Shown here: positions 8,283 through 35,763 of the stretch, piece after piece | How positions within the stretch are numbered: position 1 is the stretch's first letter | Layout: every line of letters begins with the position of its first letter | NCBI GenBank assembly: GCA_946406115.1 | Contig: OX291558.1 | Location: forward strand, 21,878,205 to 21,942,204 | DNA length: 64,000 nt | DNA from: Apoda limacodes | Taxonomy: Eukaryota > Arthropoda > Insecta > Lepidoptera > Limacodidae | Reading direction: 5' to 3' | The notes under the pieces: generated by a model | Databases searched by the model: none | What the model was told of the DNA's origin: nothing | Seen by the model: only the letters and a program-made list of their open reading frames with translations | Position numbers and translations under genes: made by a program

Positions 8283-8399
8283 AGTATCAGCATTATTACA
8301 CAAGGTTCAAATTTTACAACCGGTTCTTATAGTTGCTGATAACAATTTAATATTTGCTTCTTAATATCATTAAATAAACAACCCTCGGACGTCATTGCC

Positions 8400-10689: not shown

Positions 10690-11010
10690 TAGGATTAAGG
10701 TAAGGATAATATTAGGTTTATTAGGTTCAGGGCAATTAGGGTTAGGTAAACATGAGGTTTATAGGGTTTAGGTACACATAAAATTTATTAGGTTTAGGTA
10801 AACATGAGGATTATTAGGCTTAGGTTACAGATATGTTTAGGAGGTCTAGGTTAACATGAGGTTTATAGTGTTTAGGTTAACATTAGGGTTTATTAGGTTT
10901 GGGTGGACATGAGGGTTATAAGGTTTAGGTTACGGTTATGTTTGGGAAGTCCAGGTCAACATGAGGGTTGTTGGATTTAGGTTTATGTAGGGGTTTTTAG
11001 GTTAAGGTTA
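10690..11010 (+). repeat. Degenerate TTAGG/TTTAGG telomere-like tract
   Basis: TTAGG, TTTAGG and TTAGGG words recur densely, within loosely periodic units containing TTAGGTAAACATGAGGTTTAT. TTAGG is the usual insect telomere repeat, but these copies are interspersed with other words, so this is not a telomere array. The counterpart in copy B is at about 23,510-23,840 (CCTAA on +). Confidence 0.6.
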
Positions 11011-11170
11011 GCGTTATTGCTGAATTAAGGTTAGATTAAGTCTCGAGTAATTTATATGTCATTACTGAACTAGGTTCGAGTTGTAAGTCGAGGTCTTAAA
11101 ACTTAGGTGTAGAGATCCAGTGGTTAATTAAGAAACAAGTCACAACTGATAAGTGTACATTTATGACTTG

Positions 11171-11182
11171 TTGGGGAGGATT
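11171..11182 (+). promoter_or_regulatory. Polypurine tract before 3' LTR of copy A
   Basis: GTTGGGGAGGAT lies immediately before the TG that opens the 3' LTR at 11,183. A purine-rich tract here is where plus-strand DNA synthesis starts in LTR retroelements. It fixes the element's orientation, because the opposite end has no comparable tract. Copy B has the identical sequence at 23,341-23,352 on -. Confidence 0.6.
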
Positions 11183-14100: not shown

Positions 14101-16802
14101 TAGCTTCTCCGGACTAGCGGCTATTTAAACTTAAGGAGCCTCGGGTTCGAACCGACCGATCGTAGGTTATATTCAAATAATAACGAGATGGTCCCTTTAG
14201 TTCCGTAGTTAGTCATAGTAGTAAGGATAAATACATGGTCGTCTGGTTGTTTGCCACCTCCGCAGCGTTATAAATGTAGGAGTTGGCGGGGAGCACTACT
14301 TACCTATCCTAAAGAACAGTTTAAGGCACGGTGTACGAAGGATAAAGGTTATCTATTAACTCAATTACTAAATGACAGGAGGGCGAAGCCACAAGGTAAG
14401 CTAGTTTGATTAAACCTATCTACGAGTCTGTCAGGAGTTGGTCGTTATATACCTTCCTTGTTAAAGGTTCCAAGACGTCAGTCAGATAATAAGTACGATA
14501 CAATTGACAACCGCTTAAGGCCAGACGGTACCCTAGGCCCTTAAGGCTATTCAAATTCAAGTTATACATAATTAATTTTCAATATTCATTTTAGCGATCA
14601 AGTAGGAACAACCTAGTGTATGAGTTAGGCGAGCGTTAGGTTTTGTCTCAATTTTATAGTTTTGTTTTCATAAACTTTATATTCTAGTGTAGATAATCGC
14701 CATAGCTTGTAACCATAAACTCAATTTTAGATCTAAGAACGAAATTCGTACTGACCGGGTCGCGAGATACTAAACCAAAACCGAACCAACGTAAATTAGT
14801 CGAAGGAAGGTCGAGTAACACGATTAGACTCTGTACCTGCGCAGAAGACTAAAATGTGAACTCTGCGCACTCACGTGACCACGAGACGCCAGCTGGGCAC
14901 TTCGACGCACAGGCAAATGTATGGAAAGTCTGACCGGTTAGTCTTTAATTGGCCGAAGGGATAATTCGGTGGCGGGCCCAATAATTCTGAATAGAACAAC
15001 TTACGAACCCTTAAGGAATGGTTGTATATGTGAATTTTCCTGGATGATTCCCAGTTAGGGTTACCCGTAAACGACCTGGAAACTAGGATTGGTAGATTTA
15101 GATAGACTTCCATACTAAATCGTCCGCCCTTAGCGCCCTCTATAAGACCTCCTCAATATCTCCATTATTAGACAGTTAGCTAAGATAGCGATCGACCGAG
15201 TAATTCCACGATTATTACACAGATGGCGTGAGTTTCAGTGGTAAAATAATAATCATGAATGTATGTGGATTTCTGGATACCTACGGTTAGGACTATGTTA
15301 TAACTTTATTTAAAGGGTAGGCTGTAGATGTATTTCAGGGTTACATTTACTTCTAATTTGTTAGTTTGTCTTTACGGCGATTCTACATATATTATTATAA
15401 GATTAGATTAGAAGAGAAGCTAGTAAGGATAGTGGTAGTCTTTTTATATACTTAGATTGCCTTTGGGGTGGCTTCTCGAATACCATTACGACTTTATAAT
15501 TTCACTTAGGGGTTGTTAACGGGTTGTCAACAGGCTCTTTATGCAATTACTAAACTTATCGGTCAGTCTGTGGTGCATTCTTAAGTGTTATTGAGAGGGT
15601 TGTGTAATTTACGTAAGGGCCAGGCCGCGAGTATATTCGTTTTTATCTATATATATATTCAATCTGTTAGTTCATCCGTATGGTGACCTTTCATATTACA
15701 TTACAGTTTTATAACTTCGCTTAAGAGATCGATAGCTAGTCTACTAATAATTTATCTATGTACTTAATAGGTCCGCTTGTCTCCCTAATGCCTTATATAT
15801 GTTGTTATTAGTTCCGACCTTCACTTAAGCGCAAGCTAGAGAACTGGTGACAGGTTAGTTGTGTAGGTTATAGGTTAATTAAGGGATCAATAGCGTACCT
15901 GCTAATAATTTATTTAGTTATTAAATAGGTCTGTCTGTCTCTTAAATGATTTTGTTATATTATAAGTGTATAAATTTAGTTAAGGGGAAGCCAGTGAGCT
16001 TATTAGTGGTTAGTACTTTCATATGTCTAAGGGTTCTTCCTTTTAAGGTGATTTTCCTACATTACTATGAGGTTACAAGTTTACTTAAGGGCAAGATAAC
16101 TAGTGTATCGATGGACTACTTACCGTTTAAGAGTTCTCCTTTAAGGCGATTTCATACATTACTATAGGATTACGACTTCACTTAAGGGGTATGCGGTCAT
16201 AGTCGTTATAACTTCAAGGCCTATCGTGTTCGAGGGGTAACCGTGTTATTACGAGACATGTTCGGAGTTGTAAGGAGGTAGCTAGGCTGGTGAATAGGGT
16301 GACTTAGGCTAGGGTACTTCGACTACGTTAGGATAATAAATCGCATATATTTTAATCTGAAACTCGCATTTAGTAATTTAAATTCTGGTCTAATGCTAAT
16401 CAGGACTTAGTGGTTCTGCGGTTAAGGATTAGTTATAGGCCATTGCTTTTAATGTAGGTATAATGTAAAATTAGGGTTTTGATTTTGTTCTTTCACACCT
16501 GGGACTGATTGAATCCATACCTCTTAGGATCTGGGGTTATTATCGGTCACAACGAGGGGTCCAAATAGACGATTACGCCATTAGACGATCACAGCCAAAT
16601 AAAATATTAGCTTTCTTTAATAATAACATTAACGGTTACAAAATACTATTAACATTTCTTTATAATAATAGAGACAACAATAATATGTTAGAATTACACA
16701 TGTCTTCACGTATTCAAATTGGCGAGTACGTCGGTATACTCCACGTGAGTTCAAATTTATAATTTTATTATTTTTATAAACTGGGGGGGGCGGGTTTCTA
16801 CA
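11183..16802 (+). repeat. 3' LTR of copy A (complete, 5,620 bp)
   Basis: Complete terminal repeat from TGTAGTGGTCCC (11,183) to TTTCTACA (16,802). From 12,584 onward it matches 1-4,218. The differences I could find are one substitution (C at 2,288 against T at 14,871) and the G-run at the extreme 3' end. The terminal 170 bp differ from the copy B version by a cluster of substitutions and a 4-bp indel. 5.6 kb is far longer than the 0.2-1 kb usual for insect LTRs. No promoter can be assigned with confidence. Confidence 0.85.
12535..12975 (+). repeat. 131-bp tandem array in 3' LTR of copy A
   Basis: GGCAACCCTTG recurs at 131-bp intervals with four start points (about 12,537, 12,668, 12,799 and 12,930). 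The left array boundary GATTAGGGTTAAGGTCAGGC matches the boundary seen in inverted copy B. Confidence 0.9.
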
Positions 16803-16840
16803 TTTTTGGTATTACATTAGGTATACTTGGTATAAATGAC
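16803..16840. other. 38-bp host sequence between copy A and the LINE
   Basis: After the terminal CA of copy A the sequence leaves the element and runs 38 bp to the LINE's target duplication. If A inserted like B, the first four bases (TTTT, 16,803-16,806) should also lie just upstream of A, outside the window. Confidence 0.6.
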
Positions 16841-16852
16841 AACTTGGTTTCA
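16841..16852. repeat. Target-site duplication of the split LINE, left
   Basis: AACTTGGTTTCA, identical to 36,228-36,239. The LINE's TTGATTGATTG tail follows directly. Confidence 0.75.
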
Positions 16853-17862
16853 TTGATTGATTGATTGTTTTATTTAATGGCATTCGTTTAGGAACACATA
16901 GCCACCATCAGTGTTACGTCAAGATTAAATTTAAAAATTACGGTGTACTATATCTTAAGCTGCTGTTGGATTACCTGAAAATAAGGAAAAATATTTTGTT
17001 TTATGATCTACACTATACTACTACTATTATAATGAATCATACATAGTCAATTTTAAATATTAAAAATATACCTATAGTTTTATGTTGTTACTGATGATAA
17101 ATAACGACAGTATGTTAATAGTAACTGGATTTAGATGATGCAACATACACTCAATTGACAATGGTAGTGGGATCTTATTATCTACTAGTGATTTATATAA
17201 ATTGTCATGATTATACTTTGGACATGAGAATACAATGTGGTTTAAATAACCCTCATCAAGGCCACATTCACATAAGGATGAATCACATATTCTTAACTTT
17301 TTTAAATGTACAGGAATACAACAGTGGCCAAATCTCATCCTACTGATGATAGTACAAACTTTTTTATTTGTTTTGTATTTGTAGAACCACGGTTTTTCAG
17401 GAATGATTGGCTGTAGTTTCCTGTAATGATCACCTATATTTTTGCAGTTACGTATCCATCTACAGGACCATCTACGTCTCAAACTTTGACTTGGGATCAA
17501 CAATAAATCTTGAGGATAGTTTTTGAAAGGAACCTTGTCACCACAAATAATGGCTTCCTTAGCTATTTTGTCGGCACTTTCATTTCCACAGATACCACTA
17601 TGACCTGGGATCCAAACTAGTACATCCTGTAATCCTAACTGAGAACACCTAAGTAAGAGTTCTTTACACTCAAATATTATCTGACTCTTAGCATTTGCTT
17701 TAAATGGGTTACACTGTAAAGATTTAGGGGACTAAGGGAAGCTGAACATATTACTGTGTGTGAGAGTTTAAACAGTAAGACATACTTGACTGCTTCTAAA
17801 ATACCCCTGCATTCACCAGTGTACACTGTAGTTTCTGGGGGACACTTGATTTTTTGAACTAT
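16853..17862 (-). pseudogene. LINE RNase H C-terminal half and zinc-finger-like tail
   Basis: Read on -, this begins inside RNase H with the block containing the catalytic glutamate (VYTGECRGILEAVKYV). It continues, after a frameshift near 17,720, to the conserved VWIPGHSGICGNESADKIAK block near 17,600. The tail (17,503-17,072) contains CECGLDEGYLNHIVFSCPKY, the Cys/His motif common at the C-terminus of I/Jockey-type LINE proteins. The N-terminal half of the same domain is at 35,764-36,210. RNase H degrades the RNA strand during target-primed reverse transcription. The copy is dead: 5'-truncated, frameshifted and interrupted. Confidence 0.8.
17859..17862. repeat. 4-bp target-site duplication of copy B, left
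   Basis: CTAT directly before TGTAGAAACC (17,863). It matches CTAT at 35,760-35,763. Four-base duplications are usual for many Gypsy-type integrases. Confidence 0.8.
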
Positions 17863-20800
17863 TGTAGAAACCCCCCACTTATAAAAATAATAAAATTATA
17901 AATTTGAACTCACGTGGAGTATACTGACGTAGTCGCCAATTTGAATACGTGATGGCGTACGTAATCCTAACATATTATTATTGCCTTTATTATTATAAAT
18001 GTTAATGATATTTTGTAACCGTTAATGTTATTATTAAAGAAAGCTAATATTTTATTTGGCTGTGATCGTCTAGTGGCGTAATCGTCTATTTGGACCCCTC
18101 GTTGTGACCGATAATAACCCCAGATCCTAAGAGGTATGGATTCAATCAGTCCCAGGTGTGAAAGAACAAAATCAAAACCCTAATTTTACATTATACCTAC
18201 ATTAAAAGCAATGGCCTATAACTAATCCTTAACCGCAGAACCACTAAGTCCTGATTAGCATTAGACCAGAATTTAAATTACTAAATGCGAGTTTCAGATT
18301 AAAATATATGCGATTTATTATCCTAACGTAGTCGAAGTACCCTAGCCTAAGTCACCCTATTCACCAGCCTAGCTACCTCCTTACAACTCCGAACATGTCT
18401 CGTAATAACACGGTTACCCCTCGAACACGATAGGCCTTGAAGTTATAACGACTATGACCGCATACCCCTTAAGTGAAGTCGTAATCCTATAGTAATGTAT
18501 GAAATCGCCTTAAAGGAGAACTCTTAAACGGTAAGTAGTCCATCGATACACTAGTTATCTTGCCCTTAAGTAAACTTGTGACCTCATAGTAATGTAGGAA
18601 AATCACCTTAAAAGGAAGAACCCTTAGACATATGAAAGTACTAACCACTAATAAGCTCACTGGCTTCCCCTTAACTAAATTTATACACTTATAATATAAC
18701 AAAATCATTTAAGAGACAGACAGACCTATTTAATAACTAAATAAATTATTAGCAGGTACGCTATTGATCCCTTAATTAACCTATAACCTACACAACTAAC
18801 CTGTCACCAGTTCTCTAGCTTGCGCTTAAGTGAAGGTCGGAACTAATAACAACATATATAAGGCATTAGGGAGACAAGCGGACCTATTAAGTACATAGAT
18901 AAATTATTAGTAGACTAGCTATCGATCTCTTAAGCGAAGTTATAAAACTGTAATGTAATATGAAAGGTCACCATACGGATGAACTAACAGATTGAATATA
19001 TATATAGATAAAAACGAATATACTCGCGGCCTGGCCCTTACGTAAATTACACAACCCTCTCAATAACACTTAAGAATGCACCACAGACTGACCGATAAGT
19101 TTAGTAATTGCATAAAGAGCCTGTTGACAACCCGTTAACAACCCCTAAGTGAAATTATAAAGTCGTAATGGTATTCGAGAAGCCACCCCAAAGGCAATCT
19201 AAGTATATAAAAAGACTACCACTATCCTTACTAGCTTCTCTTCTAATCTAATCTTATAATAATATATGTAGAATCGCCGTAAAGACAAACTAACAAATTA
19301 GAAGTAAATGTAACCCTGAAATACATCTACAGCCTACCCTTTAAATAAAGTTATAACATAGTCCTAACCGTAGGTATCCAGAAATCCACATACATTCATG
19401 ATTATTATTTTACCACTGAAACTCACGCCATCTGTGTAATAATCGTGGAATTACTCGGTCGATCGATATCTTAGCTAACTGTCTAATAATGGAGATATTG
19501 AGGAGGTCTTATAGAGGGCGCTAAGGGCGGACGATTTAGTATGGAAGTCTATCTAAATCTACCAATCCTAGTTTCCAGGTCGTTTACGGGTAACCCTAAC
19601 TGGGAATCATCCAGGAAAATTCACATATACAACCATTCCTTAAGGGTTCGTAAGTTGTTCTATTCAGAATTATTGGGCCCGCCACCGAATTATCCCTTCG
19701 GCCAATTAAAGACTAACCGGTCAGACTTTCCATACATTTGCCTGTGCGTCGAAGTGCCCAGCTGGCGTCTCGTGGTCACGTGAGTGCGCAGAGTTCACAT
19801 TTTAGTCTTCTGCGCAGGTACAGAGTCTAATCGTGTTACTCGACCTTCCTTCGACTAATTTACGTTGGTTCGGTTTTGGTTTAGTATCTCGCGACCCGGT
19901 CAGTACGAATTTCGTTCTTAGATCTAAAATTGAGTTTATGGTTACAAGCTATGGCGATTATCTACACTAGAATATAAAGTTTATGAAAACAAAACTATAA
20001 AATTGAGACAAAACCTAACGCTCGCCTAACTCATACACTAGGTTGTTCCTACTTGATCGCTAAAATGAATATTGAAAATTAATTATGTATAACTTGAATT
20101 TGAATAGCCTTAAGGGCCTAGGGTACCGTCTGGCCTTAAGCGGTTGTCAATTGTATCGTACTTATTATCTGACTGACGTCTTGGAACCTTTAACAAGGAA
20201 GGTATATAACGACCAACTCCTGACAGACTCGTAGATAGGTTTAATCAAACTAGCTTACCTTGTGGCTTCGCCCTCCTGTCATTTAGTAATTGAGTTAATA
20301 GATAACCTTTATCCTTCGTACACCGTGCCTTAAACTGTTCTTTAGGATAGGTAAGTAGTGCTCCCCGCCAACTCCTACATTTATAACGCTGCGGAGGTGG
20401 CAAACAACCAGACGACCATGTATTTATCCTTACTACTATGACTAACTACGGAACTAAAGGGACCATCTCGTTATTATTTGAATATAACCTACGATCGGTC
20501 GGTTCAAACCCGAGGCTCCTTAAGTTTAAATAGCCGCTAGTCCGGAGAAGCTATACTCGCCCGAAACATATGCCGTGCAAGCTAAGTTCACAAGAAATAA
20601 TAAAATAGGTGTGCGATTACGCACATGGTTAAGTGGTGAATTGTTCATCAGAGTAATTAAGGCGACAGAACACCTAGTTTGACACACAATAAATATGTTT
20701 AAGGTGGATTGTAAGGAAGACATATCCACACTCAGGACCCGGCGCATTAGCCAGATCAAGTAAGGGTTAGCCCTTTCTGAGTGTTTAGAACTTAACGTTT

Positions 20801-23340
20801 CGGCTTTCCATACAACAATTCAGAGCCTCATCAGTTAGTAGAGAATTGTGTATGATTATACTAATACGTCTTCAACGGGGTGATTCATGGCGAAGAATAG
20901 AACAAATCCTGACCCACTAACGTCACCTCATAGCCTGTTAATAAAGTTTGGTCAATGTTGAAGTTCTGTCATCTTTATCTTAAATGGCTTAGTCAAAACA
21001 TAAATTAAACAGTATAAGCAATAAAATAAAGCTTAGATAGTCTAATTAAAAATTAGACTCTCTAGATTAATGTCGCGGCTCTGAAAAACATATGAGGTTT
21101 ACGTTTATTTTTACACAGGAAACAAATATTTAAATATGAACACAATAATACTTAGCTTTCCAAATCTATCCGTCGCAATAATGGGTGGAGTGGAGGTACT
21201 ATTTATCTATGGATTCCTTAAGGAGATTGGGTTAAAAATCCCACATTAAATTTTAGCCACCCATTACCTAAACGGCATCTAACAGTTCAGCTTCCCCACT
21301 CGACGCCGGTGAAGGGTGGAACTGGAGCCAACCCAGATTTAGGTTTTATCAGCCCCCTCACACCCTTAGATTCCTGAAGCCTGCAGTTATCCTAGTATGT
21401 CTCTAACATCAAGCCCCAATCTTCCCTAATCTTATAACAAGCCAGACCCCGCTTGAAGAACCCCTACTGTGATTGCCCCGTCCTCACCTACCTCTATCTA
21501 CCAAGGGTCTGCTTGCTTTGGGGGTCACCCATACCGCAACGCAACAAGACATCGGGACTAAAATGATTGAGATAGTAAGTAGCGGATATAGAGATATCAT
21601 TAACATAACCATCAATTACATGTAACATAACTGTACCATTCTAATGAGCGTCTACCAAAGCGTGTAGGATTTTCATCAATGAAGATACATATACACAGGA
21701 CAGGATTCACACAAGGGTTGCCTGCCAAGTCATGTAAGCATGCCCCGTCACCTCGAGTCCGATCAAAGCGCGAAGTCGATGCTCAGGACTTGCGTAGGGC
21801 TTTCATCAATAAGATATACATATACACAGGACAGGATTTACACAAGGGTTGCCTGCCAAGTCATGTAAGCATGCCCCGTCACCTCGAGTCCGATCAAAGC
21901 GCGAAGTCGATGCTTAGGACTTGCGTAGGGCTTTCATCAATAAGATATACATATACACAGGACAGGATTCACACAAGGGTTGCCTGACCTTAACCCTAAT
22001 CTTAAACGATTTCTTAACTAATCAGATCAGAGCCTAATTACGGGGTTTCTTCCCACAAAGTATCACAAAATTTACAACATCATGTTAAGAGACGCCGATC
22101 CCGGCAGGAGCCCTTTTCTCCACTAAATTTTCTGCAGAAATCGGCAATCTCTTTTCCTTTAAGAGTACATAGCCAACAATGTCAACAAACTACCTCTGCA
22201 TTTTTAATAAACAAGGGTTTTTCCCTTCTCTACTCCAAATTTACAACTAGAATCCCAACCAAAAAGTCAACCACTTTCAATTTTCCCCAACCAACCCTTC
22301 ACTTTAACCAAGGTGGCATCTTACACGGTCCCTTACACAGTCCTTACGCCATGGTATAAAGGAAGTCCCTCACAAAGCCCCATAGTACAAACCCATCAAT
22401 AATAAGTTGACATTGCTAGCCTCAGTTCTCACAAAAGACACTTACTGATATTTGATGTAGGCGAAACGTGCACGGCGTCGGTATTAAATTTCTTCAAATC
22501 TTTGTTCGTCCTGTCCTTCCCGCTTCCTCAGGAATCTCGAGCACGGCCAGCCTCTCGGTACGACGACAGTGGAAAAGGGTGCCGCAACTGACGCCTATCG
22601 CTTATAACCGTTCTCCCCTCCCCCCCGATAGACGCGGCCTGAACGCGTGGCGTGTCTAGGGATTGTGGCGCCAGTTAATTTCTTCTTTATTTTACTTCCA
22701 CGTGTACCCACGTGCTTCGCATTTTAGTGGCCAGTTACTTTATAGTAATAATCGGACATCATATCGAGATCGTAAACCGATTCTACTAAACTCTTTACCT
22801 GCCGAACTAGTTTCTCCGCTTCTTTGTGACTCGATTATACAGCTTCGATTAATTTACACATTGAAGGCTCGTCGTAAGCGGCGCGGAGCCTACTCTACTA
22901 TCCCTCTCGCACCCTACGATATTTATAACAATTAACTGAAAATAATCGTTCGATATTCTCCATATATTTTAACCTCCTGGTTATCTGCTACTTTACGAAT
23001 CGGTCGTATTTAACGAGTAATTATTTTTCTTTGTGTTGATGATTTTAGGATCCCACTGCGATTTACGCCTTATGACGTAGGTACAACCATATTAATCGAA
23101 CCCCGGTGAGGACATCCGGGCCCCTCACTTACTTCATACTTCATTGATCTCCTTTCTATCCATTTATTAGGAGTATCCGATCGGTATGAATTACGAAGGT
23201 GATTAATCAAATTTATATTTATTATTGATAAATTCTATCTTTAATTCACCTGCTCTCTTAAAACTTAAATTAGCATGTCAACACCGTGTCGTGGGGTCCA
23301 GATTATTACAATTCTTTATAAAAGGCTTGGGACCACTACA
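17863..23340 (-). repeat. 3' LTR of copy B (5,478 bp)
   Basis: Runs from CTACA on the - strand at 17,863 up to 23,340, where TGTAGTGGTCCC begins. It has one fewer 131-bp unit than the 5' LTR. Private changes include A in GGTTCAAACCC near 20,507 (others have GGTTCGAACCC), a one-base deletion near 21,017, and AATAAACAAGG near 22,209 (others AATAAGCAAGG). It carries A at 19,783 (T on the element strand), the variant also found in the 3' LTR of copy A. Confidence 0.88.
21669..21990 (-). repeat. 131-bp tandem array in 3' LTR of copy B
   Basis: AAGGGTTGCC recurs at about 21,719, 21,850 and 21,981, a 131-bp period. This is one unit shorter than in the other complete LTRs and accounts for almost all of the LTR length difference. 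Confidence 0.9.
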
Positions 23341-23352
23341 ATCCTCCCCAAC
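23341..23352 (-). promoter_or_regulatory. Polypurine tract before 3' LTR of copy B
   Basis: On -, GTTGGGGAGGAT abuts the TG of the 3' LTR, identical to copy A at 11,171-11,182. Confidence 0.6.
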
Positions 23353-23509
23353 AAGTCATAAATGTACACTTATCAGTTGTGACTTGTTTCTTAATTAACC
23401 ACTGGATCTCTACACCTAAGTTTTAAGACCTCGACTTACAACTCGAACCTAGTTCAGTAATGACATATAAATTACTCGAGACTTAATCTAACCTTAATTC
23501 AGCAATAAC

Positions 23510-23840
23510 GCTAACCTTAACCTAAAAACCCCTACATAAACCTAAATCCAACAACCCTCATGTTGACCTGGACTTCCCAAACATAACCGTAACCTAAACC
23601 TTATAACCCTCATGTCCACCCAAACCTAATAAACCCTAATGTTAACCTAAACACTATAAACCTCATGTTAACCTAGACCTCCTAAACATATCTGTAACCT
23701 AAGCCTAATAATCCTCATGTTTACCTAAACCTAATAAATTTTATGTGTACCTAAACCCTATAAACCTCATGTTTACCTAACCCTAATTGCCCTGAACCTA
23801 ATAAACCTAATATTATCCTTACCTTAATCCTAGCCCTGCC
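23510..23840 (-). repeat. Degenerate TTAGG-like tract, copy B
   Basis: On + this reads as many CCTAA/CCTAAA words mixed with CATGTTAACC-type spacers. It is the same tract as 10,690-11,010. Confidence 0.6.
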
Positions 23841-24764
23841 GTCAGTAAAAAAGAAATCGCATCGAAATTTCCCGTAACCTCCTCCGAGAGCGGTATCGCG
23901 ACTAATACACAAGGCCCCTTATACAACAATGAAAACTTCTTAATCCACTTCACCCTCACACTTGAGTTATCAGTTCTACGCGCTTTCATCAAATTCCCTG
24001 ACCGGAATTGTTCCTTTCAACGTGTCTTCTCATAAGGATCACCCTTCCTTTAACTGCACTTTACCCATTCAGTCCTAGCCTTATCTTTCATTTCCTCCAA
24101 TTCCCTCTCGCTTATATTATCGACGGTTTTCCATCCATTCCCCCGTCGTAAAATCAACTTAGTTCACCCTAAAACATAATCATACGTTCACCCTATTAAA
24201 ACTAGCAACAGCACCTAAAGCTTAAATCAGTCTCTCGACACTACTGATTTCTAACTAATCAACTTAATGGACATCTCCCATCCTATAATCACCCTCAACT
24301 CCAAGGTTATCTCATCGTTCAAGGTCTGCTTCCATTTAGATATTAATGAATCTCATACTATAGTTCCGTACCAAGACGATGACTAATCAAACCTGGTTTA
24401 GCGTGGTACTAGTTGTCTCATCATGTTCCTCACTAATCTAAACTGGTTTAAAGGGCTGTACCCAATAAGCTACGATGATCACCTAAGAGCCTCCTAATAA
24501 TAATGAATGACACGTCATAATAATTACTCGAAATAGAACGTAAGAGATTAAAAAGAAATTATAGTGCTTAAGATCGTGCTTTACTCAAATGCAGCAAATA
24601 ACTATGACGAACACAGCTTCAGTTAAGGACCACTGGCCTCACTCAACCTCAGCCAGCGACTACTCAGGGACCCACCCTGTCGAAACAAGGTCAGTCCCCT
24701 GCAACGCTACGATAGGAAACACCAGATATAATGGATAGTTATGAAGAATATAGTAGATCGAAGA

Positions 24765-26290
24765 AGGGAAATATGATTGGAAGCAAACAGTTGAGTTTTT
24801 CCATTATTAGTCGTAGATAATCAGGACGGGTACGACGGAAATGCTTCGGTTAAGGACCAAGGGCCTCACTTAATCTAGGCTTGTTATGATGAATATGCTT
24901 CGATTAAGGACCAAAGGCCTCTCTCAACCTCGGCTTGTCGGGATAGTTATAGTAGTTTAAATATGGCGATGATGTTTGGAAACAAACAGTTGAGTTTGTT
25001 CATTATTAGATGTAGGTAATTATGATAGATATAGTAGTTTGAATATGGCGACGACGTTTGAAAACAAACAGTTGAGTTTGTCCATTCTTAGATGTAGGTA
25101 ATTATGATAGATATAGTAGTTTGAATATGTCGACGATGTTTGGAAACAAACAGTTGAGTTTGTCAATTATTAGATGTAGGTAATCATGATAGATATAGTA
25201 GTTTGAATATGGCGACGACGTTTGGAACCAAACAGTTCAGTTTGTCCATTATTAGATGTAGGTAATTATGATATATATTGCAGTCTGAATATGGCAACGA
25301 CGTTTGGAAACAAACAGTTGAGTTCGTCCATTATTAGTCGTAGGTAATCATGATGGATATGCTTCGGTTAAGGACCAAGGGCCTCACTCAATCTAGGCTC
25401 GTTACAATGTATATGCTTCGATTAAGGACCAAGGGCCTCACTCAACCTCGGCTCGTCATGATAGATATAGTAGTTTCAATATGGCGATTATGTTTGGACG
25501 CAAACAGTTGAGTTTGTCCATTTGATGACGTTCGGAAACAAACAGTTGAGTTTGTCCATTTGATGACATTCGGAAGCAAACAGTTGAGTTTGTACATTTT
25601 TTTAGCCGTAGGTAATTGTGATAGATATAGTAGTTTGAATATGGTGATGACGTTAGGACGCAAACAGTTGAGTTTGTCCATTTGATGATATTCAGGAATA
25701 AACAGTTAAGTTTGTCCCTTAGACGATGTTCGAAAGCAACCAGATGAGTTTGTCCATTTTATGACATTCGGAAGCAAACAGTCTAGTTTGTCCATTTTTA
25801 GCCGTAGGTAATTGTGATAGATATTGTAGTTTGAATATGGTGATGACGTTAGGACGCAAACAGTTGAGTTTGTCCCTTTGATGACGTTCGGAAACAACCA
25901 GTTGAGTTTGTCCATTATTGGCTTTAGATAATTATGATGGAAACAGTTGAGTTTTTCCATTTGGCGATATTCCGAAACAGACAGTTGAGTTGGTCCAATA
26001 TTAGCGATAGATAGCTATGACGGATATGCTTCGGTTAAGGACCAAGGCCTCACTCAATCTAGGCTCATTATAATGTATACGCTTCGATTAAGGACCAAGG
26101 GCCTCACTCAACCTCAGCTCGTTATGATAGATATAGTAGTTAGAATATGGCGATGATGTTTGGACGCAAACGGTGGAGTTTGTTCATTCTAGCAATAAAT
26201 AGCTATGACGGATCTGCTTCAGTTAAGGACCAAAGGCCTCACTCAACCTCAGCTCGTTATGATGTATAAAAGTCTGAATAGGGCAATGAC
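24765..26290 (-). repeat. CAACTGTTTG minisatellite, copy B
   Basis: On + the core reads CAAACAGTTGAGTTTGTCC and recurs every 37 or 83 bp, interleaved with GGACCAAGGGCCTCACTCAACCT. Unit order and number differ from copy A, with extra units near 25,880-26,000. Confidence 0.85.
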
Positions 26291-26394
26291 GTCCGAGGGT
26301 TGTTTATTTAATGATATTAAGAAGCAAATATTAAATTGTTATCAGCAACTATAAGAACCGGTTGTAAAATTTGAACCTTGTGTAATAATGCTGA

Positions 26395-27208
26395 TACTAG
26401 AGCGGCCTAAACCCATACCCCGCATATCCCCCTCCTCCCCTTAACTACTCACCCCTCATTCACGTTAAGCCTAACTTCCACTAACGGCGTATACATATGT
26501 ACGCATACCTCCACACACTTATACAAACATACACCGGAAGCGATCCATCAAAACAGCAGTTGCCGGAACATTAAAACCTCCCTGAATCCCACAAGGCAAA
26601 TTTGTTAGGGCTGCCACACCCTCGTTTTTTTTTTTTTTCCCCCGGCGACTTAAACACATCTCCAGCATAACACCTTTTGCTTCTTCAGTTAAGGACCTGA
26701 CTCTCCCACCCTCATGCAGGGCCCGACCTCAACTTCGACACATATACACATGTATGCATACTAATATGTACACACACACATAGACATGCACCGCCCGCGG
26801 TCACTCAGGGATCGTACCTGTCGAAACATTACGACCCCCTGCAACTCACACGGCAAAAATCACAGGGGTTACACTAGCCATGTATAAAAAAATCCAAATC
26901 ATTTCAGTTCAGGCCCTAACAAATTACAATCTTTACCCGCGACGATTTAAACACACCCTCAGCATAACCCTTTTCGCTCTTTCAGTTAAGGACCTGACTC
27001 TCCCACCATTAAGGCAGGGCCCGACCTCAACTTCGACACATATACACATGTATGCATACTAATATGTATACACACACATAGACATGCACCGCCCGCGGTC
27101 ACTCAGGGATCGCACCTGCCGAAACATTACGACCCCCTGCAACTCACACGGCAAAAATCACAGGGGTTACACTGACCATGTATAAAAATCCAAAATCATT
27201 TCAAATCA
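26395..27208 (-). repeat. 298-bp tandem array, copy B (two good units)
   Basis: GAAACATTACGACC recurs at 26,823 and 27,121, exactly 298 bp apart, with a decayed unit and a T run (about 26,626-26,638) further left. One unit fewer than copy A. Confidence 0.9.
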
Positions 27209-28014
27209 CGATTCATACCAACCTAAATAATAACCTTGTCCTACTCGGCTGGGTTTAATAATTTTGCCTTAGTTTCACATCTACATAGCAGATAATAGTA
27301 TCTATCCACGTTCTAGCTCACTTTTCACCTTACGCTGAACCTAATTTATATATATATTTATATTTCATGCGAATCCTAATTCTGAATAAACGTTAATGCA
27401 GTTTAATAAACATTTATTATGTTGACTCCTCCCCTAACAACTTAGCGATTTATACTGTGGTACCCTCCCCTCTCGTAATGTACATTTCATTTCTAACCGC
27501 CCTTAACATGACTACCCTAACAAAACCGGTCCCTGACCTACGTCAATGGTTTTACTCAGACATCAACCCCATTTCTCAATTGCTACATATCGCCTACTCG
27601 ACAGAACCCTTTAAACAGATAATACCTATTAACAATAACCTATTTAGTTCAAAAGGAACACGCTACCAGGCATACCCGACCTGAACACCACCTAATACCT
27701 GCCATTGTCCTATCTTACCTTTAAGTACATTAAATTTCCTAATCCGATTTGTATATATATATATATATATACATAAGTACACTTCCCGTTTACATTTCAG
27801 TATCACACTTCCAATTTATTACCTTCATAAATAATATCACAATAGGTTAAACCCTTTCACATTACTGGTCCGCCTAGTAATAAAATATTTATCGACAATC
27901 AATATAATTTGGCAAGCAAAACCATGATCCAAAAGTATCCTAAAATCTGAATCTAATAGCCCGTGAACGGTAGCAACGAATCTATAAAAGATGACCTAAA
28001 CCTAACGTCTACAT

Positions 28015-28125
28015 TCGATCGCACAGAATCACCCCAGACAGCTCCGTCGGCCAAACACCTCACGCTCGCGCCAAAACCCCGGGAAACTCCGAGTTCAAAT
28101 CCCCGCTCGAGCGCACACCCTTTTC
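28015..28125 (+). other. tRNA-like sequence in interior of copy B (antisense to element)
   Basis: AGCTCCGTCGGCCAAACACC (D-arm-like), GAGTTCAAATCCC (B-box-like) and CTTTTCTCC (terminator-like) occur in order on +, antisense to the element. Stem pairing is weak. Same as 6,240-6,340 on - in copy A. Confidence 0.35.
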
Positions 28126-30072
28126 TCCCCCCGTTTATATTATTTGATATAATTTTCTTTCACCATATCGTATCCCTAAACTAACAACTTACAAAGTACA
28201 TTTAGTCGTTTTAACATCTACTGTTTACTTTGTTAAGGTTACCTTCTACCAGACATGAATCTTCCCGTTGGAGGAAGTTCACCTGGTCTAAGGGCTTAAC
28301 AGACGTCACCGTCAAGTGAAACAGTAATTAGATGTTCGTACTTTGGAATACCCCTTTAACTAAACTTATAAACCGATAATTACACATATATACTGATATG
28401 TCTAAATGGCCTATGGGGATGATCCCAACTTACTAAGTCAGCGCTACTTAGTATAAAATTAAAGTACTGAGATGGATGAGGCCTACTTTAGCTAATATCT
28501 TAGTGACCTTATGACCTCACTTCTGCATTAACATTCCAAATGCTCGCTATCCCGCCTTTCAATGCATTCCCTAATCATAAAATAGCTCACTCTAACTCTT
28601 CAATAGTAAAATGATACATTTAGGCTGCACCCTACTTTAATGTACAGGTTTCTGCTTGGGTTTAAAATCGATTTCGCTGTCCTATGGCAAGTTCCAAACC
28701 GAAAATAACATGGCCTTCTACATTCTTTGACTAGCAGATTACTGCATTTGGTTGCGCGGTTTCTGTCCAAACCAATTTTTTTTCTTTAAGAAAATTACAG
28801 CCGAATTTCCCGTTTTCTATTTTTAATTCATAACTCGTTATCAACAAGTTAGCGAGAGCATAATTTATTCCATGACATGTTAAATAACTACATAGCTAGA
28901 AAATTACTGTAATTTAATTTTTATATCGCATGTGATGTAACTGTAATCAAATATTTCCCCCCCTTTACGCTAAGTTGTGGGCCTATCTATAATATTTTTA
29001 CGCCACTGGAAAACGAGCTCTATCTGAAACTAACATTGTCGACTCCCGCTACACACCCGCATAGCAAAGGTATATGTGCGTTGGGGCCCTCTTAAGTGCT
29101 CGTTATTTTATTATGTCCTCCCCCTCCCCCAGCATATAAGACCTTTATTCCACAGTGCCCCCCCCCCCCCTCTAAATAATAATTCTACGTATATAGACAG
29201 TTCATTAAGGCCACACCAACTATACTGATCTCTAACCTATGTCCATACGGTAATACGCCTCGCGACAGGCCACTAAAGTCCATAAGGGGGTTCCCTTTTT
29301 TATAAATAGTACGGCTAACTCCTCCACTCTATCAGTTGACAATCACAAGTTCAAGAATCCTTCCATAAAACACCTGCGAATTTATATACTTATCCACATC
29401 TACTTACGCACACATATACGTACAAACCAACACTCACAAGCTTATTCGAAACGTACTCACAACATTAAGCTAAGGTCCATAATTATTGAATAGTGCTATC
29501 CAATAATAAATTTATTCGAATCTAGTTTTTAAACATTTTCTTAAACCTATGTTATGGCAATATGCATATAGGTACTACCACATAGAAGTTCAGATTGAAC
29601 GAGACTAGTAAGATTTATCTTACGAATACCGTTCCCTAGGTTTCGGATGATTGAGATATACGAGTATGTATTTATAAATAAGGTTATTAGATCATACCCC
29701 TGCCTACCATTCTATAAATGTAATTTTAATTTTGCGTATTAGCCGTAATTTTATGTCTACATATTACTAGTAATGCCTTCCTATATCTAAGCCTAAGTCG
29801 TAGAATATATCTTACTATACTAGTACCTAGATAGATGTACTGTACTACCTAACTAAAAAATAAAAACCATTCTTTTACACTAATTTAACATGGTTTTATC
29901 CTAAACTTGGCCTACAATTCCCATATATGCTATATTAAAGTATGTGTCTATAACTAAGCTTAAGTAACAAACAACTACAAAATGCCTTCTAAACAAGATT
30001 TATATCTTGCTTATTGGTTCCATTCTGTCACACCAGTCACCAACTCAAATCCATTTTAATGACCTCCCATCC

Positions 30073-30109
30073 GTTGTACGACAACAAAATGTAGGCTTTT
30101 ACAAGCCTA
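30073..30109 (-). promoter_or_regulatory. Twin hairpins after the 5' LTR of copy B
   Basis: On - the sequence TAGGCTT-GTAA-AAGCCTA (30,109-30,092) is followed by GTTGT-CGT-ACAAC (30,085-30,073), 41 nt past the end of the LTR and identical to copy A. Confidence 0.45.
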
Positions 30110-30149
30110 TTTTAGTTCTATATCTTATCCTGGTAACGGCAACACATAA

Positions 30150-33100
30150 TGTAGAAACCCCCCACTTATAAAAATAATAAAATTATAAATTTGAACTCAC
30201 GTGGAGTATACTGACGTAGTCGCCAATTTGAATACGTGATGGCGTACGTAATCCTAACATATTATTATTGCCTTTATTATTATAAATGTTAATGATATTT
30301 TGTAACCGTTAATGTTATTATTAAAGAAAGCTAATATTTTATTTGGCTGTGATCGTCTAGTGGCGTAATCGTCTATTTGGACCCCTCGTTGTGACCGATA
30401 ATAACCCCAGATCCTAAGAGGTATGGATTCAATCAGTCCCAGGTGTGAAAGAACAAAATCAAAACCCTAATTTTACATTATACCTACATTAAAAGCAATG
30501 GCCTATAACTAATCCTTAACCGCAGAACCACTAAGTCCTGATTAGCATTAGACCAGAATTTAAATTACTAAATGCGAGTTTCAGATTAAAATATATGCGA
30601 TTTATTATCCTAACGTAGTCGAAGTACCCTAGCCTAAGTCACCCTATTCACCAGCCTAGCTACCTCCTTACAACTCCGAACATGTCTCGTAATAACACGG
30701 TTACCCCTCGAACACGATAGGCCTTGAAGTTATAACGACTATGACCGCATACCCCTTAAGTGAAGTCGTAATCCTATAGTAATGTATGAAATCGCCTTAA
30801 AGGAGAACTCTTAAACGGTAAGTAGTCCATCGATACACTAGTTATCTTGCCCTTAAGTAAACTTGTGACCTCATAGTAATGTAGGAAAATCACCTTAAAA
30901 GGAAGAACCCTTAGACATATGAAAGTACTAACCACTAATAAGCTCACTGGCTTCCCCTTAACTAAATTTATACACTTATAATATAACAAAATCATTTAAG
31001 AGACAGACAGACCTATTTAATAACTAAATAAATTATTAGCAGGTACGCTATTGATCCCTTAATTAACCTATAACCTACACAACTAACCTGTCACCAGTTC
31101 TCTAGCTTGCGCTTAAGTGAAGGTCGGAACTAATAACAACATATATAAGGCATTAGGGAGACAAGCGGACCTATTAAGTACATAGATAAATTATTAGTAG
31201 ACTAGCTATCGATCTCTTAAGCGAAGTTATAAAACTGTAATGTAATATGAAAGGTCACCATACGGATGAACTAACAGATTGAATATATATATAGATAAAA
31301 ACGAATATACTCGCGGCCTGGCCCTTACGTAAATTACACAACCCTCTCAATAACACTTAAGAATGCACCACAGACTGACCGATAAGTTTAGTAATTGCAT
31401 AAAGAGCCTGTTGACAACCCGTTAACAACCCCTAAGTGAAATTATAAAGTCGTAATGGTATTCGAGAAGCCACCCCAAAGGCAATCTAAGTATATAAAAA
31501 GACTACCACTATCCTTACTAGCTTCTCTTCTAATCTAATCTTATAATAATATATGTAGAATCGCCGTAAAGACAAACTAACAAATTAGAAGTAAATGTAA
31601 CCCTGAAATACATCTACAGCCTACCCTTTAAATAAAGTTATAACATAGTCCTAACCGTAGGTATCCAGAAATCCACATACATTCATGATTATTATTTTAC
31701 CACTGAAACTCACGCCATCTGTGTAATAATCGTGGAATTACTCGGTCGATCGATATCTTAGCTAACTGTCTAATAATGGAGATATTGAGGAGGTCTTATA
31801 GAGGGCGCTAAGGGCGGACGATTTAGTATGGAAGTCTATCTAAATCTACCAATCCTAGTTTCCAGGTCGTTTACGGGTAACCCTAACTGGGAATCATCCA
31901 GGAAAATTCACATATACAACCATTCCTTAAGGGTTCGTAAGTTGTTCTATTCAGAATTATTGGGCCCGCCACCGAATTATCCCTTCGGCCAATTAAAGAC
32001 TAACCGGTCAGACTTTCCATACATTTGCCTGTGCGTCGAAGTGCCCAGCTGGCGTCTCGTGGTCACGTGGGTGCGCAGAGTTCACATTTTAGTCTTCTGC
32101 GCAGGTACAGAGTCTAATCGTGTTACTCGACCTTCCTTCGACTAATTTACGTTGGTTCGGTTTTGGTTTAGTATCTCGCGACCCGGTCAGTACGAATTTC
32201 GTTCTTAGATCTAAAATTGAGTTTATGGTTACAAGCTATGGCGATTATCTACACTAGAATATAAAGTTTATGAAAACAAAACTATAAAATTGAGACAAAA
32301 CCTAACGCTCGCCTAACTCATACACTAGGTTGTTCCTACTTGATCGCTAAAATGAATATTGAAAATTAATTATGTATAACTTGAATTTGAATAGCCTTAA
32401 GGGCCTAGGGTACCGTCTGGCCTTAAGCGGTTGTCAATTGTATCGTACTTATTATCTGACTGACGTCTTGGAACCTTTAACAAGGAAGGTATATAACGAC
32501 CAACTCCTGACAGACTCGTAGATAGGTTTAATCAAACTAGCTTACCTTGTGGCTTCGCCCTCCTGTCATTTAGTAATTGAGTTAATAGATAACCTTTATC
32601 CTTCGTACACCGTGCCTTAAACTGTTCTTTAGGATAGGTAAGTAGTGCTCCCCGCCAACTCCTACATTTATAACGCTGCGGAGGTGGCAAACAACCAGAC
32701 GACCATGTATTTATCCTTACTACTATGACTAACTACGGAACTAAAGGGACCATCTCGTTATTATTTGAATATAACCTACGATCGGTCGGTTCGAACCCGA
32801 GGCTCCTTAAGTTTAAATAGCCGCTAGTCCGGAGAAGCTATACTCGCCCGAAACATATGCCGTGCAAGCTAAGTTCACAAGAAATAATAAAATAGGTGTG
32901 CGATTACGCACATGGTTAAGTGGTGAATTGTTCATCAGAGTAATTAAGGCGACAGAACACCTAGTTTGACACACAATAAATATGTTTAAGGTGGATTGTA
33001 AGGAAGACATATCCACACTCAGGACCCGGCGCATTAGCCAGATCAAGTAAGGGTTAGCCCTTTCTGAGTGTTTAGAACTTAACGTTTCGGCTTTCCATAC

Positions 33101-35759
33101 AACAATTCAGAGCCTCATCAGTTAGTAGAGAATTGTGTATGATTATACTAATACGTCTTCAACGGGGTGATTCATGGCGAAGAATAGAACAAATCCTGAC
33201 CCACTAACGTCACCTCATAGCCTGTTAATAAAGTTTGGTCAATGTTGAAGTTCTGTCATCTTTATCTTAAATGGCTTAGTCAAAACATAAATTAAACAGT
33301 ATAAAGCAATAAAATAAAGCTTAGATAGTCTAATTAAAAATTAGACTCTCTAGATTAATGTCGCGGCTCTGAAAAACATATGAGGTTTACGTTTATTTTT
33401 ACACAGGAAACAAATATTTAAATATGAACACAATAATACTTAGCTTTCCAAATCTATCCGTCGCAATAATGGGTGGAGTGGAGGTACTATTTATCTATGG
33501 ATTCCTTAAGGAGATTGGGTTAAAAATCCCACATTAAATTTTAGCCACCCATTACCTAAACGGCATCTAGCAGTTCAGCTTCCCCACTCGACGCCGGTGA
33601 AGGGTGGAACTGGAGCCAACCCAGATTTAGGTTTTATCAGCCCCCTCACACCCTTAGATTCCTGAAGCCTGCAGTTATCCTAGTATGTCTCTAACATCAA
33701 GCCCCAATCTTCCCTAATCTTATAACAAGCCAGACCCCGCTTGAAGAACCCCTACTGTGATTGCCCCGTCCTCACCTACCTCTATCTACCAAGGGTCTGC
33801 TTGCTTTGGGGGTCACCCATACCGCAACGCAACAAGACATCGGGACTAAAATGATTGAGATAGTAAGTAGCGGATATAGAGATATCATTAACATAACCAT
33901 CAATTACATGTAACATAACTGTACCATTCTAATGAGCGTCTACCAAAGCGTGTAGGATTTTCATCAATGAAGATACATATACACAGGACAGGATTCACAC
34001 AAGGGTTGCCTGCCAAGTCATGTAAGCATGCCCCGTCACCTCGAGTCCGATCAAAGCGCGAAGTCGATGCTCAGGACTTGCGTAGGGCTTTCATCAATAA
34101 GATATACATATACACAGGACAGGATTTACACAAGGGTTGCCTGCCAAGTCATGTAAGCATGCCCCGTCACCTCGAGTCCGATCAAAGCGCGAAGTCGATG
34201 CTCAGGACTTGCGTAGGGCTTTCATCAATAAGATATACATATACACAGGACAGGATTTACACAAGGGTTGCCTGCCAAGTCATGTAAGCATGCCCCGTCA
34301 CCTCGAGTCCGATCAAAGCGCGAAGTCGATGCTTAGGACTTGCGTAGGGCTTTCATCAATAAGATATACATATACACAGGACAGGATTCACACAAGGGTT
34401 GCCTGACCTTAACCCTAATCTTAAACGATTTCTTAACTAATCAGATCAGAGCCTAATTACGGGGTTTCTTCCCACAAAGTATCACAAAATTTACAACATC
34501 ATGTTAAGAGACGCCGATCCCGGCAGGAGCCCTTTTCTCCACTAAATTTTCTGCAGAAATCGGCAATCTCTTTTCCTTTAAGAGTACATAGCCAACAATG
34601 TCAACAAACTACCTCTGCATTTTTAATAAGCAAGGGTTTTTCCCTTCTCTACTCCAAATTTACAACTAGAATCCCAACCAAAAAGTCAACCACTTTCAAT
34701 TTTCCCCAACCAACCCTTCACTTTAACCAAGGTGGCATCTTACACGGTCCCTTACACAGTCCTTACGCCATGGTATAAAGGAAGTCCCTCACAAAGCCCC
34801 ATAGTACAAACCCATCAATAATAAGTTGACATTGCTAGCCTCAGTTCTCACAAAAGACACTTACTGATATTTGATGTAGGCGAAACGTGCACGGCGTCGG
34901 TATTAAATTTCTTCAAATCTTTGTTCGTCCTGTCCTTCCCGCTTCCTCAGGAATCTCGAGCACGGCCAGCCTCTCGGTACGACGACAGTGGAAAAGGGTG
35001 CCGCAACTGACGCCTATCGCTTATAACCGTTCTCCCCTCCCCCCCGATAGACGCGGCCTGAACGCGTGGCGTGTCTAGGGATTGTGGCGCCAGTTAATTT
35101 CTTCTTTATTTTACTTCCACGTGTACCCACGTGCTTCGCATTTTAGTGGCCAGTTACTTTATAGTAATAATCGGACATCATATCGAGATCGTAAACCGAT
35201 TCTACTAAACTCTTTACCTGCCGAACTAGTTTCTCCGCTTCTTTGTGACTCGATTATACAGCTTCGATTAATTTACACATTGAAGGCTCGTCGTAAGCGG
35301 CGCGGAGCCTACTCTACTATCCCTCTCGCACCCTACGATATTTATAACAATTAACTGAAAATAATCGTTCGATATTCTCCATATATTTTAACCTCCTGGT
35401 TATCTGCTACTTTACGAATCGGTCGTATTTAACGAGTAATTATTTTTCTTTGTGTTGATGATTTTAGGATCCCACTGCGATTTACGCCTTATGACGTAGG
35501 TACAACCATATTAATCGAACCCCGGTGAGGACATCCGGGCCCCTCACTTACTTCATACTTCATTGATCTCCTTTCTATCCATTTATTAGGAGTATCCGAT
35601 CGGTATGAATTACGAAGGTGATTAATCAAATTTATATTTATTATTGATAAATTCTATCTTTAATTCACCTGCTCTCTTAAAACTTAAATTAGCATGTCAA
35701 CACCGTGTCGTGGGGTCCAGATTATTACAATTCTTTATAAAAGGCTTGGGACCACTACA
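30150..35759 (-). repeat. 5' LTR of copy B (5,610 bp)
   Basis: Starts TGTAGTGGTCCC at 35,759 (- strand) and ends GGGGGGTTTCTACA at 30,150. It is nearly identical to 17,863-23,340. It carries G at 32,070 (C on the element strand), the variant also present in the 5' LTR of copy A. A private change is AGC in CATCTAGCAG near 33,571. Confidence 0.88.
33957..34410 (-). repeat. 131-bp tandem array in 5' LTR of copy B
   Basis: AAGGGTTGCC recurs at 34,001, 34,132, 34,263 and 34,394, exactly 131 bp apart. An internal A/G variant (CTCAGG against CTTAGG) marks individual units: two adjacent units have CTCAGG here, only one in the shorter array, so one unit was gained or lost. Confidence 0.9.
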
Positions 35760-35763
35760 CTAT
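35760..35763. repeat. 4-bp target-site duplication of copy B, right
   Basis: CTAT directly after the terminal CA at 35,759; matches 17,859-17,862. Confidence 0.8.

What the first reader, a model, noticed from the sequence alone, without database searches (positions are those of the whole stretch)
17863..35759. A complete 17.9-kb mobile element with 5.5-kb LTRs and no proteins
Seen directly: long direct repeats, TG...CA ends with TGTAG/CTACA, a CTAT target duplication, a purine tract before the 3' repeat, and a second near-identical copy. Known: insect LTR elements usually have LTRs below 1 kb and code for gag-pol; non-coding giants (LARDs) are known mainly from plants. Inference: this is a young, non-autonomous giant LTR-type family moved in trans, or a different kind of element that mimics LTR ends. 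It is the best candidate here for an undescribed system.
Basis: partly seen in the sequence, partly recalled or inferred. Interest (0 to 1): 0.88.

Follow-up and report, generated by a model that had tools for sequence, protein, structure and literature searches.

The report
Giant gene-less retrotransposon and its driver
In what is probably a moth or butterfly genome, a 17.9-kb mobile DNA element with 5.5-kb repeats at its ends and no recognisable working gene is predicted to copy itself with proteins borrowed from a gene-bearing relative of about 22 kb that shares its ends and leader and with which it has exchanged pieces.

Summary
The element at 17863-35759 has direct repeats of 5478 and 5610 bp, TGTAG/CTACA ends, a CTAT duplication and a polypurine tract that puts it on the minus strand; no Pfam family passes its cut-off in the frames scanned. 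The window's own genome (800 Mb) answered one search: among its 40 scored hits are 18 repeat pairs on 12 contigs, and 18 of 18 have exact 4-bp target duplications. So this is an integrase-inserted LTR retrotransposon family. Four of the 18 pairs enclose a relative of about 22 kb with gag and a Ty3/gypsy pol. These partners share LTR runs identical over up to 2.5 kb, most of the leader, and the last 54 bp with the polypurine tract. In place of gag-pol the window element has 1.2 kb of non-coding DNA with a decayed pol end, whose two stop codons recur in other copies. LTR and leader blocks are shuffled between coding and gene-less copies. Best reading: an old gene-less lineage (LARD type) that jumps in trans and stays compatible with its driver through recombination, most likely RNA template switching. 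Trans-mobilisation is inferred; the primer site is unidentified. New member of a known kind, with an unusually complete partner pair.

The parts
17863..35759 (-). complete non-coding LTR element (copy 1), 17,897 bp
30150..35759 (-). 5' LTR of copy 1, 5610 bp
17863..23340 (-). 3' LTR of copy 1, 5478 bp
17859..17862 (.). target-site duplication CTAT
35760..35763 (.). target-site duplication CTAT
30126..30149 (-). first 24 nt after the 5' LTR, invariant in 16 of 16 leaders aligned; expected primer-binding region, but without the usual TGG start
25978..30149 (-). non-coding leader shared with the coding partner (about 97-99% over most of it)
24616..26027 (-). diverged tandem-repeat block (38/82-bp units); related repeats lie before gag in the partner
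23395..24615 (-). non-coding stretch of the gene-less type, standing where the partner has gag-pol
23849..24130 (-). decayed relic of the end of pol (38% aa identity to residues 1103-1206), two stop codons shared with other copies
23341..23394 (-). last 54 bp before the 3' LTR including polypurine tract GGGGAGGAT, 100% identical to the partner copy compared (L002)
33952..34405 (-). 131-bp tandem repeats inside the 5' LTR (also 21664-21986 in the 3' LTR); unit number differs between the two LTRs
1..16802 (+). second gene-less element (copy 2), cut by the window start: 5' LTR to 4218, interior 4219-11181, 3' LTR 11182-16802; no target duplication
16803..17862 (-). target DNA between the two copies, with part of a decayed RNase H gene of a retrotransposon (17072-17731)

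Best explanation
This is an LTR retrotransposon without recognisable working genes whose LTRs, leader and polypurine tract closely match those of a Ty3/gypsy element of about 22 kb in the same genome, and it most likely moves by having its RNA packaged, reverse-transcribed and integrated by that partner's Gag and Pol. Shown: integrase-type insertion (4-bp TSDs), youth, the coding partner, the shared cis signals, the lack of gag-pol with a decayed pol end, and exchange of LTR and leader blocks between coding and gene-less copies. Inferred: expression from the LTR, packaging in the partner's particles, and that the exchange happens by template switching when both RNAs share a particle, which would also keep the gene-less lineage compatible with its driver.
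For: TSD: 18 of 18 LTR pairs among the 40 hits have exact 4-bp duplications, 14 different sequences. Empty site: joining the flanks of copy 1 carries the target's open frame across the site, from 156 to 215 aa. Youth: 0-4 mismatches between the two LTRs in 12 of 12 pairs, 0 in 5 of them. Partner: 4 of 18 pairs enclose gag (360 aa) and pol (1211 aa); gag is open in 3 of 4, pol in 3 of 4; pol has RT, RNase H and integrase above cut-off and weak protease and G-patch matches; best PDB match Ty3 Gag-Pol, E 7.8e-78. Shared cis DNA: last 54 bp identical to the partner copy compared, leader about 97-99%, first 24 leader bases invariant in 16 of 16 leaders. Old gene loss: the relic carries two stop codons common to win1, win2, C22 and C11 copies; 0 of 300 shuffles gave a match at E up to 10. 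Recombination: exact runs of up to 2531 bp shared by a gene-less and a coding LTR, beside blocks up to 18% different between copies outside the LTR's tandem repeats; neighbour-compatibility test 0.163 against 0.478 +/- 0.005 over 411 sites, 0 of 500 shuffles as low, and still 0.265 against 0.436 +/- 0.007, 0 of 500, over 205 sites without repeats and gapped columns; all four combinations of leader type and body type in 10 leaders.
Against: No RNA, particle or transposition data exist here. The primer-binding site is not identified: the first TGG in the leader is at base 81, and no self-complementary stretch of 11 or more was found. Only four coding copies were read, and one genome search was answered, so another driver is not excluded. 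The relic's pol is only 38% identical to the partner's, so the original driver was probably another lineage. Mosaic blocks could also arise by gene conversion between genomic copies before a copy transposed. The window's second copy has no target duplication.
Confidence: 0.86

Rival explanations
1. The gene-less copies are simply recent internal deletions of the 22-kb element, arising again and again, not a lineage of their own.
For: LTR and leader are nearly identical to the partner's over long stretches in the window copies.
Against: The 1.2-kb stretch in place of gag-pol was not found in the partner copy compared, carries a pol relic only 38% identical with stop codons shared between loci, and is itself up to 13% diverged in its last 560 bp among 10 gene-less copies.
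Confidence: 0.06
2. The element is driven by a different, unseen LTR family, and the similarity to the 22-kb element reflects common descent and gene conversion only.
For: The relic's pol is only 38% identical to the partner's pol, so the original driver was probably a different lineage; conversion between genomic copies can make mosaics; the genome was searched only once.
Against: Cis signals match the 22-kb element over the last 54 bp and the first 24 leader bases; in the pairs compared both LTRs of an element are nearly identical and so carry the same mosaic, as expected if it was present before or made during reverse transcription.
Confidence: 0.1
3. Segmental duplication, satellite or assembly artefact that mimics LTRs.
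For: Two near-identical copies sit tail to tail 1 kb apart, and copy 2 lacks a TSD and has a chimeric left flank, so a misjoin there is possible.
Against: 18 of 18 pairs on 12 contigs with 4-bp TSDs of 14 different sequences, and an empty site for copy 1.
Confidence: 0.02
4. A new class of mobile element with terminal direct repeats that is not a retrotransposon.
For: No coding capacity found and 5.5-kb terminal repeats.
Against: Polypurine tract at the 3' LTR, TG/CA ends, 4-bp TSDs, and coding members with a Ty3-type pol between LTRs of the same family.
Confidence: 0.01

Closest known systems
LARDs (large retrotransposon derivatives) of plants, such as barley Sukkula (name recalled; the kind is described in passages of PMC6431247)
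   Same: LTRs around a long interior that lacks the coding sequence, thought to move in trans
   Different: In a probable lepidopteran; interior 6.8 kb with tandem repeats; a coding partner with closely matching LTRs is identified, and a pol relic remains
Non-autonomous LTR families of Culex quinquefasciatus (PMC3286476, passages)
   Same: Insect; non-coding interiors with tandem repeats
   Different: LTR lengths visible in the passages are 208-931 bp, tRNA primer sites were assigned, and the authors found no master copy; here LTRs are about 5.5 kb, no tRNA site was found, and a likely master is present
Wheat autonomous/non-autonomous pairs: RLC_Angela and Wilma/Sabrina/WHAM (PMC9744471, passages), Cereba/Quinta (PMC11302176, passages)
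   Same: Pairs recognised by shared LTRs or LTR termini (for Cereba/Quinta also the primer site and polypurine tract, per its abstract); LTR or internal exchange attributed to template switching or gene conversion
   Different: Plants; Quinta still encodes Gag; here no gene was recognised, and the exchange shows as kilobase identical runs and as all four leader/body combinations
Ogre of legumes and Burro of planarians (PMC6431247, passages)
   Same: Giant Ty3/gypsy elements; Ogre 16-25 kb with LTRs of 1.9-6.5 kb
   Different: In the partner copies read the only frame of 150 aa or more before gag is one of 157 aa, in a leader insert; the closest named pol relatives are lepidopteran; membership in either lineage was not shown

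Membership tests
LTR retrotransposon | Direct LTRs with TG/CA ends and a constant short target duplication | tested here: met
   18 of 18 pairs with exact 4-bp TSDs; the window's copy 2, not in that list, has none
LTR retrotransposon | Polypurine tract directly before the 3' LTR | tested here: met
   GGGGAGGAT directly before the 3' LTR in the 3' junctions that lay inside fetched stretches; one 3' junction (C27_77) lay outside its stretch
LTR retrotransposon | Primer-binding site complementary to a tRNA 3' end (starts TGG) after the 5' LTR | tested here: inconclusive
   First TGG at base 81 of the leader; 24 invariant bases of unknown partner; the host's tRNA genes were not searched
LARD | LTRs of several kb around a non-coding interior | tested here: met
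   LTRs of about 5.4-5.9 kb in the copies delimited, interior 6.8-7.0 kb in the window, no Pfam family above cut-off in 9 of 15 frames of 90 aa or more
LARD | Transposition in trans by an autonomous element | not testable with these tools
   Only inferred, from shared cis signals and recombination with a coding partner
Ty3/gypsy (for the partner) | Pol order protease, RT, RNase H, integrase, closest to Ty3 | tested here: met
   Pfam order (protease match below its cut-off); best PDB match Ty3 7q5b, E 7.8e-78
Ogre lineage of plants | Extra long open frame between 5' LTR and gag, and pol of the plant Ogre/Tat lineage (lineage name recalled) | tested here: not met
   Frames of 150 aa or more before gag: only a 157-aa one in the 791-bp leader insert, in 3 of 4 partner copies; the named pol relatives above 50% identity are lepidopteran; no tree with plant Ogre was made

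The most novel reading that the evidence does not exclude
A long-lived animal parasite-of-a-parasite: a gene-less giant retrotransposon lineage that lost its own gag-pol, switched drivers, and stays mobile because its RNA repeatedly recombines with the RNA of a 22-kb Ty3/gypsy driver inside shared particles, so that LTRs and leader are refreshed while the dead centre drifts; the 4-kb shared leader would be the packaging and recombination platform, and priming may not use a tRNA 3' end.
Probability: 0.35. Interest if true: 0.62.

Novelty: new member of a known kind. Interest (0 to 1): 0.5.

Why it matters
Gene-less LTR elements in an insect have been reported without a master copy (Culex, PMC3286476, passages). 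Here likely driver and passenger sit in one assembly, both are young, and they carry recombination tracts that show which parts stay in common. It makes the question of how non-autonomous LTR elements remain compatible with a driver testable in an animal, and it adds a gypsy family of about 22 kb with 5.6-kb LTRs in a probable lepidopteran.

Tried and rejected
Rejected: segmental duplication, satellite or artefact for copy 1 (TSDs, empty site); a non-LTR kind of element; recent simple deletion of the partner. Led nowhere: Rfam and tRNA scans; self-priming complementarity; folding of the leader start, z -1.71, 10 of 200 shuffles as good, not significant; exact-pattern scans of viral contigs and genome contigs for the polypurine-LTR junction and the leader start, 0 matches each, as expected for a eukaryote. 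Literature: searches were seen as listings (most listed papers were not opened), with passages of seven papers; no clear lepidopteran precedent appeared there, but the library holds only open-licence papers. Not done: genome-wide copy counts, solo-LTR counts and an unbiased age distribution, because after the genome search did not complete. One search scored only 40 of 520 candidates, so the copies studied are biased towards those most like the window. Of the 4 unpaired hits, 3 have element interior next to the LTR and 1 is undetermined; none was shown to be a solo LTR. Corrected on checking: windows of 20-38% LTR divergence fall in the 131-bp repeat region, where four LTRs carry other sequence and the alignment means little; they are no longer used, and the recombination test was repeated without them. 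Odds for the best explanation were lowered by 0.01 for that.
Full report
What is there. Self-comparison of the window and reading of the boundaries confirm a complete element at 17863-35759 with two direct repeats (5478 and 5610 bp), ends TGTAG...CTACA and a CTAT duplication. The purine tract lies next to the left repeat on the minus strand, so the element reads right to left: 5' LTR 30150-35759, interior 23341-30149, 3' LTR 17863-23340. A second copy reads the other way at 1-16802, tail to tail with the first across 1060 bp that hold part of a decayed RNase H gene. Within each copy the LTRs are nearly identical (copy 1: 4 of 5478; copy 2: 3 of 4218 in the alignment, 4 in that); between copies LTRs differ by about 0.5% and interiors by 138 of 6637. 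The differences argue against a mirror artefact.

No proteins. Of 15 stop-to-stop frames of 90 aa or more inside copy 1, 9 were scanned and none matches Pfam above its cut-off. The 6 left out are 5 counterparts in the 3' LTR and one frame in the tandem repeats. Rfam gives only a sub-threshold match and there is no tRNA.

Genome-wide evidence. The window lies in G000, 800 Mb in 31 contigs. One search with 601 bp of an LTR end was answered: 40 scored hits of 520 candidates, which form 18 pairs 11.5-26 kb apart on 12 contigs, plus 4 unpaired hits. I read both outer flanks of these 18 pairs: 18 of 18 have an exact 4-bp duplication (CTAT, AGCT, GTGT, CGCT, ACCA, AGTA, GTGT, AGGT, TGTT, CCCT, AGGC, ATGT, AGTT, TATG, AGCT, GAGG, AGGC, AGTA). 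The window's copy 2, not in that list, has GGAT and TTTT and thus none. Joining the flanks of copy 1 extends the target's frame across the site from 156 to 215 aa; the target gene is itself broken, with its continuation in another frame. In 12 LTR pairs compared the two LTRs differ at 0-4 sites, and 5 pairs have no mismatch. [quoted passage not shown] The sample is biased to copies like the window's.

The partner. Four of the 18 pairs (C4, C5, C12 and C7 loci) are 15.9-16.7 kb apart and enclose coding DNA. Their frames encode a 360-aa gag-like protein (Retrotrans_gag match below cut-off) and a 1211-aa pol with RT, RNase H, integrase and, more weakly, protease and G-patch; the best solved relative is Ty3 Gag-Pol, E 7.8e-78. 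gag is open in 3 of 4 and pol in 3 of 4. Two partners with both LTRs fully read are 22,129 and 22,327 bp (spacing plus LTR length). Of 507 pol relatives 120 were listed: those with an organism name and over 50% identity are Parnassius mnemosyne, Plutella xylostella, Heliothis virescens and Helicoverpa armigera (56-67%); two at 30-39% are from a pseudoscorpion; unnamed ones reach 72%. With 31 contigs this makes the host a probable moth or butterfly.

What is shared and what is not. Gene-less (N) and coding (A) copies share the LTRs, about 4 kb of leader (97-99%), related tandem repeats, and exactly the last 54 bp with the polypurine tract in the A copy compared. Between the repeats and those 54 bp, A has gag-pol and N has 1.2 kb of other DNA (window 23395-24615). 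This N stretch contains a relic of the last hundred residues of pol, 38% identical, E about 2e-15; 0 of 300 shuffled versions gave a match at E up to 10. The relic has the same two stop codons in win1, win2, C22 and C11, and C4_2525 has the second only. So N did not arise by recent deletion of A; it more likely descends from a related, more distant coding element. Ten N copies are 0-13% apart in the last 560 bp of this stretch. Of the 18 pairs, 9 are N by this stretch (win1, C22, C4_2525, C11, C8, C12_2415, C17, C27_626, C3_1457) and 4 are A; 5 were not typed by interior, though their LTRs start like N's.

Recombination. I aligned 14 LTRs: 3 A, 10 N, and C27_77, which is N-like by its LTR start only. 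Divergence comes in blocks: windows at 0% beside windows at 8-18% outside the LTR's tandem repeats. Inside the 131-bp repeat region four LTRs carry other sequence, and the 20-38% shown there is not meaningful. The window LTR and an A LTR differ at 52 sites, 38 of them in the first 266 bases; elsewhere they share an exact run of 1416 bp, and another N copy shares 2531 bp exactly with an A copy. A site-compatibility test on 411 informative sites gives 0.163 incompatible among near neighbours against 0.478 +/- 0.005 in 500 shuffles, none as low; restricted to 205 sites away from repeats and gaps it is 0.265 against 0.436 +/- 0.007, again none of 500. In 10 leaders typed for a 791-bp leader insert all four combinations occur: N without (5), A without (1), A with (3), N with (1). 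C12_2415 has the same last 560 bp of the N stretch as the window copy while its aligned LTR differs by 6.7%, part of it in the repeat region. In the pairs compared the two LTRs of an element are nearly identical, so the mosaic existed before or arose during reverse transcription. RNA template switching in a shared particle is the simplest mechanism; conversion in a source copy beforehand is not excluded.

How it most likely works. The LTR drives a long RNA (inferred). The shared leader and 5' end let it enter particles made by the 22-kb element (inferred). Pol copies it, using the shared polypurine tract (shown as sequence), and integrase inserts it with 4-bp duplications (shown). Template switches between N and A RNAs (exchange shown, mechanism inferred) keep N's signals up to date with its driver.

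Against and open. The primer site is not found: the leader starts with 24 bases invariant in 16 of 16 leaders, but the first TGG, the usual start of a tRNA site, is at base 81, and no self-priming stretch of 11 or more was found. Copy 2 has mismatched flanks: to its left lies interior sequence of another N copy, a 17-bp filler, and a piece of the 791-bp leader insert, then its LTR. Ectopic recombination or an assembly misjoin could cause this. No expression data exist here.

Comparison. By function it would work like a LARD with its driver. LARD structure is met; movement in trans was not testable. In the papers seen, gene-less LTR families of Culex lack a master (PMC3286476, passages), and wheat provides well-studied pairs with LTR exchange (PMC9744471 and PMC11302176, passages). 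Giant gypsy elements are known from legumes and planarians (PMC6431247, passages). Listings showed no clear lepidopteran precedent, but most listed papers were not opened and only open-licence papers are held. I therefore call it a new member of a known kind.

Noticed in passing
C21:21875300-21876802 (L056, L046), just left of the window: Left flank of copy 2 is a chimera of family sequence: interior 4936-5945 (100%), a 17-bp filler, then part 177-652 of the 791-bp leader insert (100%), then the 5' LTR of copy 2. Looks like a rearrangement or misjoin among copies.
   Followed up: partly
C22:5709022-5741637 region (L005-L007, L039): Three LTRs and two gene-less interiors in tandem inside one TATG duplication, as expected from recombination between LTRs of two elements.
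   Followed up: partly
window 1-35759: Two copies of about 18 kb tail to tail, 1 kb apart: read-through RNA could form a very long hairpin, a possible source of small RNAs.
   Followed up: no
window 30030-30149 (minus): The first about 100 leader bases are nearly invariant in 16 leaders and are predicted to hold a 7-bp hairpin (UAGGCUU-guaa-AAGCCUA); possible packaging or primer region. Overall fold not significant (z -1.71).
   Followed up: partly
window 33952-34405 and the matching place in four other LTRs: In four LTRs (C12_2415, C17_2694, C27_626, C3_1457) the place of the 131-bp tandem repeats is taken by other sequence; origin not traced.
   Followed up: no
window 23519-23787 and 10735-11003: Degenerate AACCTAA-rich repeats in the N-only stretch, reminiscent of telomere-like repeats.
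   Followed up: no
window 45589-51030 (+): Decayed Ty3/gypsy-like pol in several frames (RVT_1 62.9 bits at 47735-48166; RT_RNaseH at 49681-50205).
   Followed up: no
window 53128-55848 (-): Open 906-aa frame with endonuclease and reverse transcriptase, a non-LTR retrotransposon.
   Followed up: no
window 57418-61697 (-): A further probable non-LTR retrotransposon with an open reverse transcriptase frame (RVT_1 125 bits at 57418-59073).
   Followed up: no
window 26635-27203 and 7171-8032: 298-bp tandem repeats in the shared leader, about two units in copy 1 and three in copy 2.
   Followed up: no
C27:774341-780941 (L028): A 3' LTR whose start did not fall inside the fetched stretch; it seems longer than the others. 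Not characterised.
   Followed up: no
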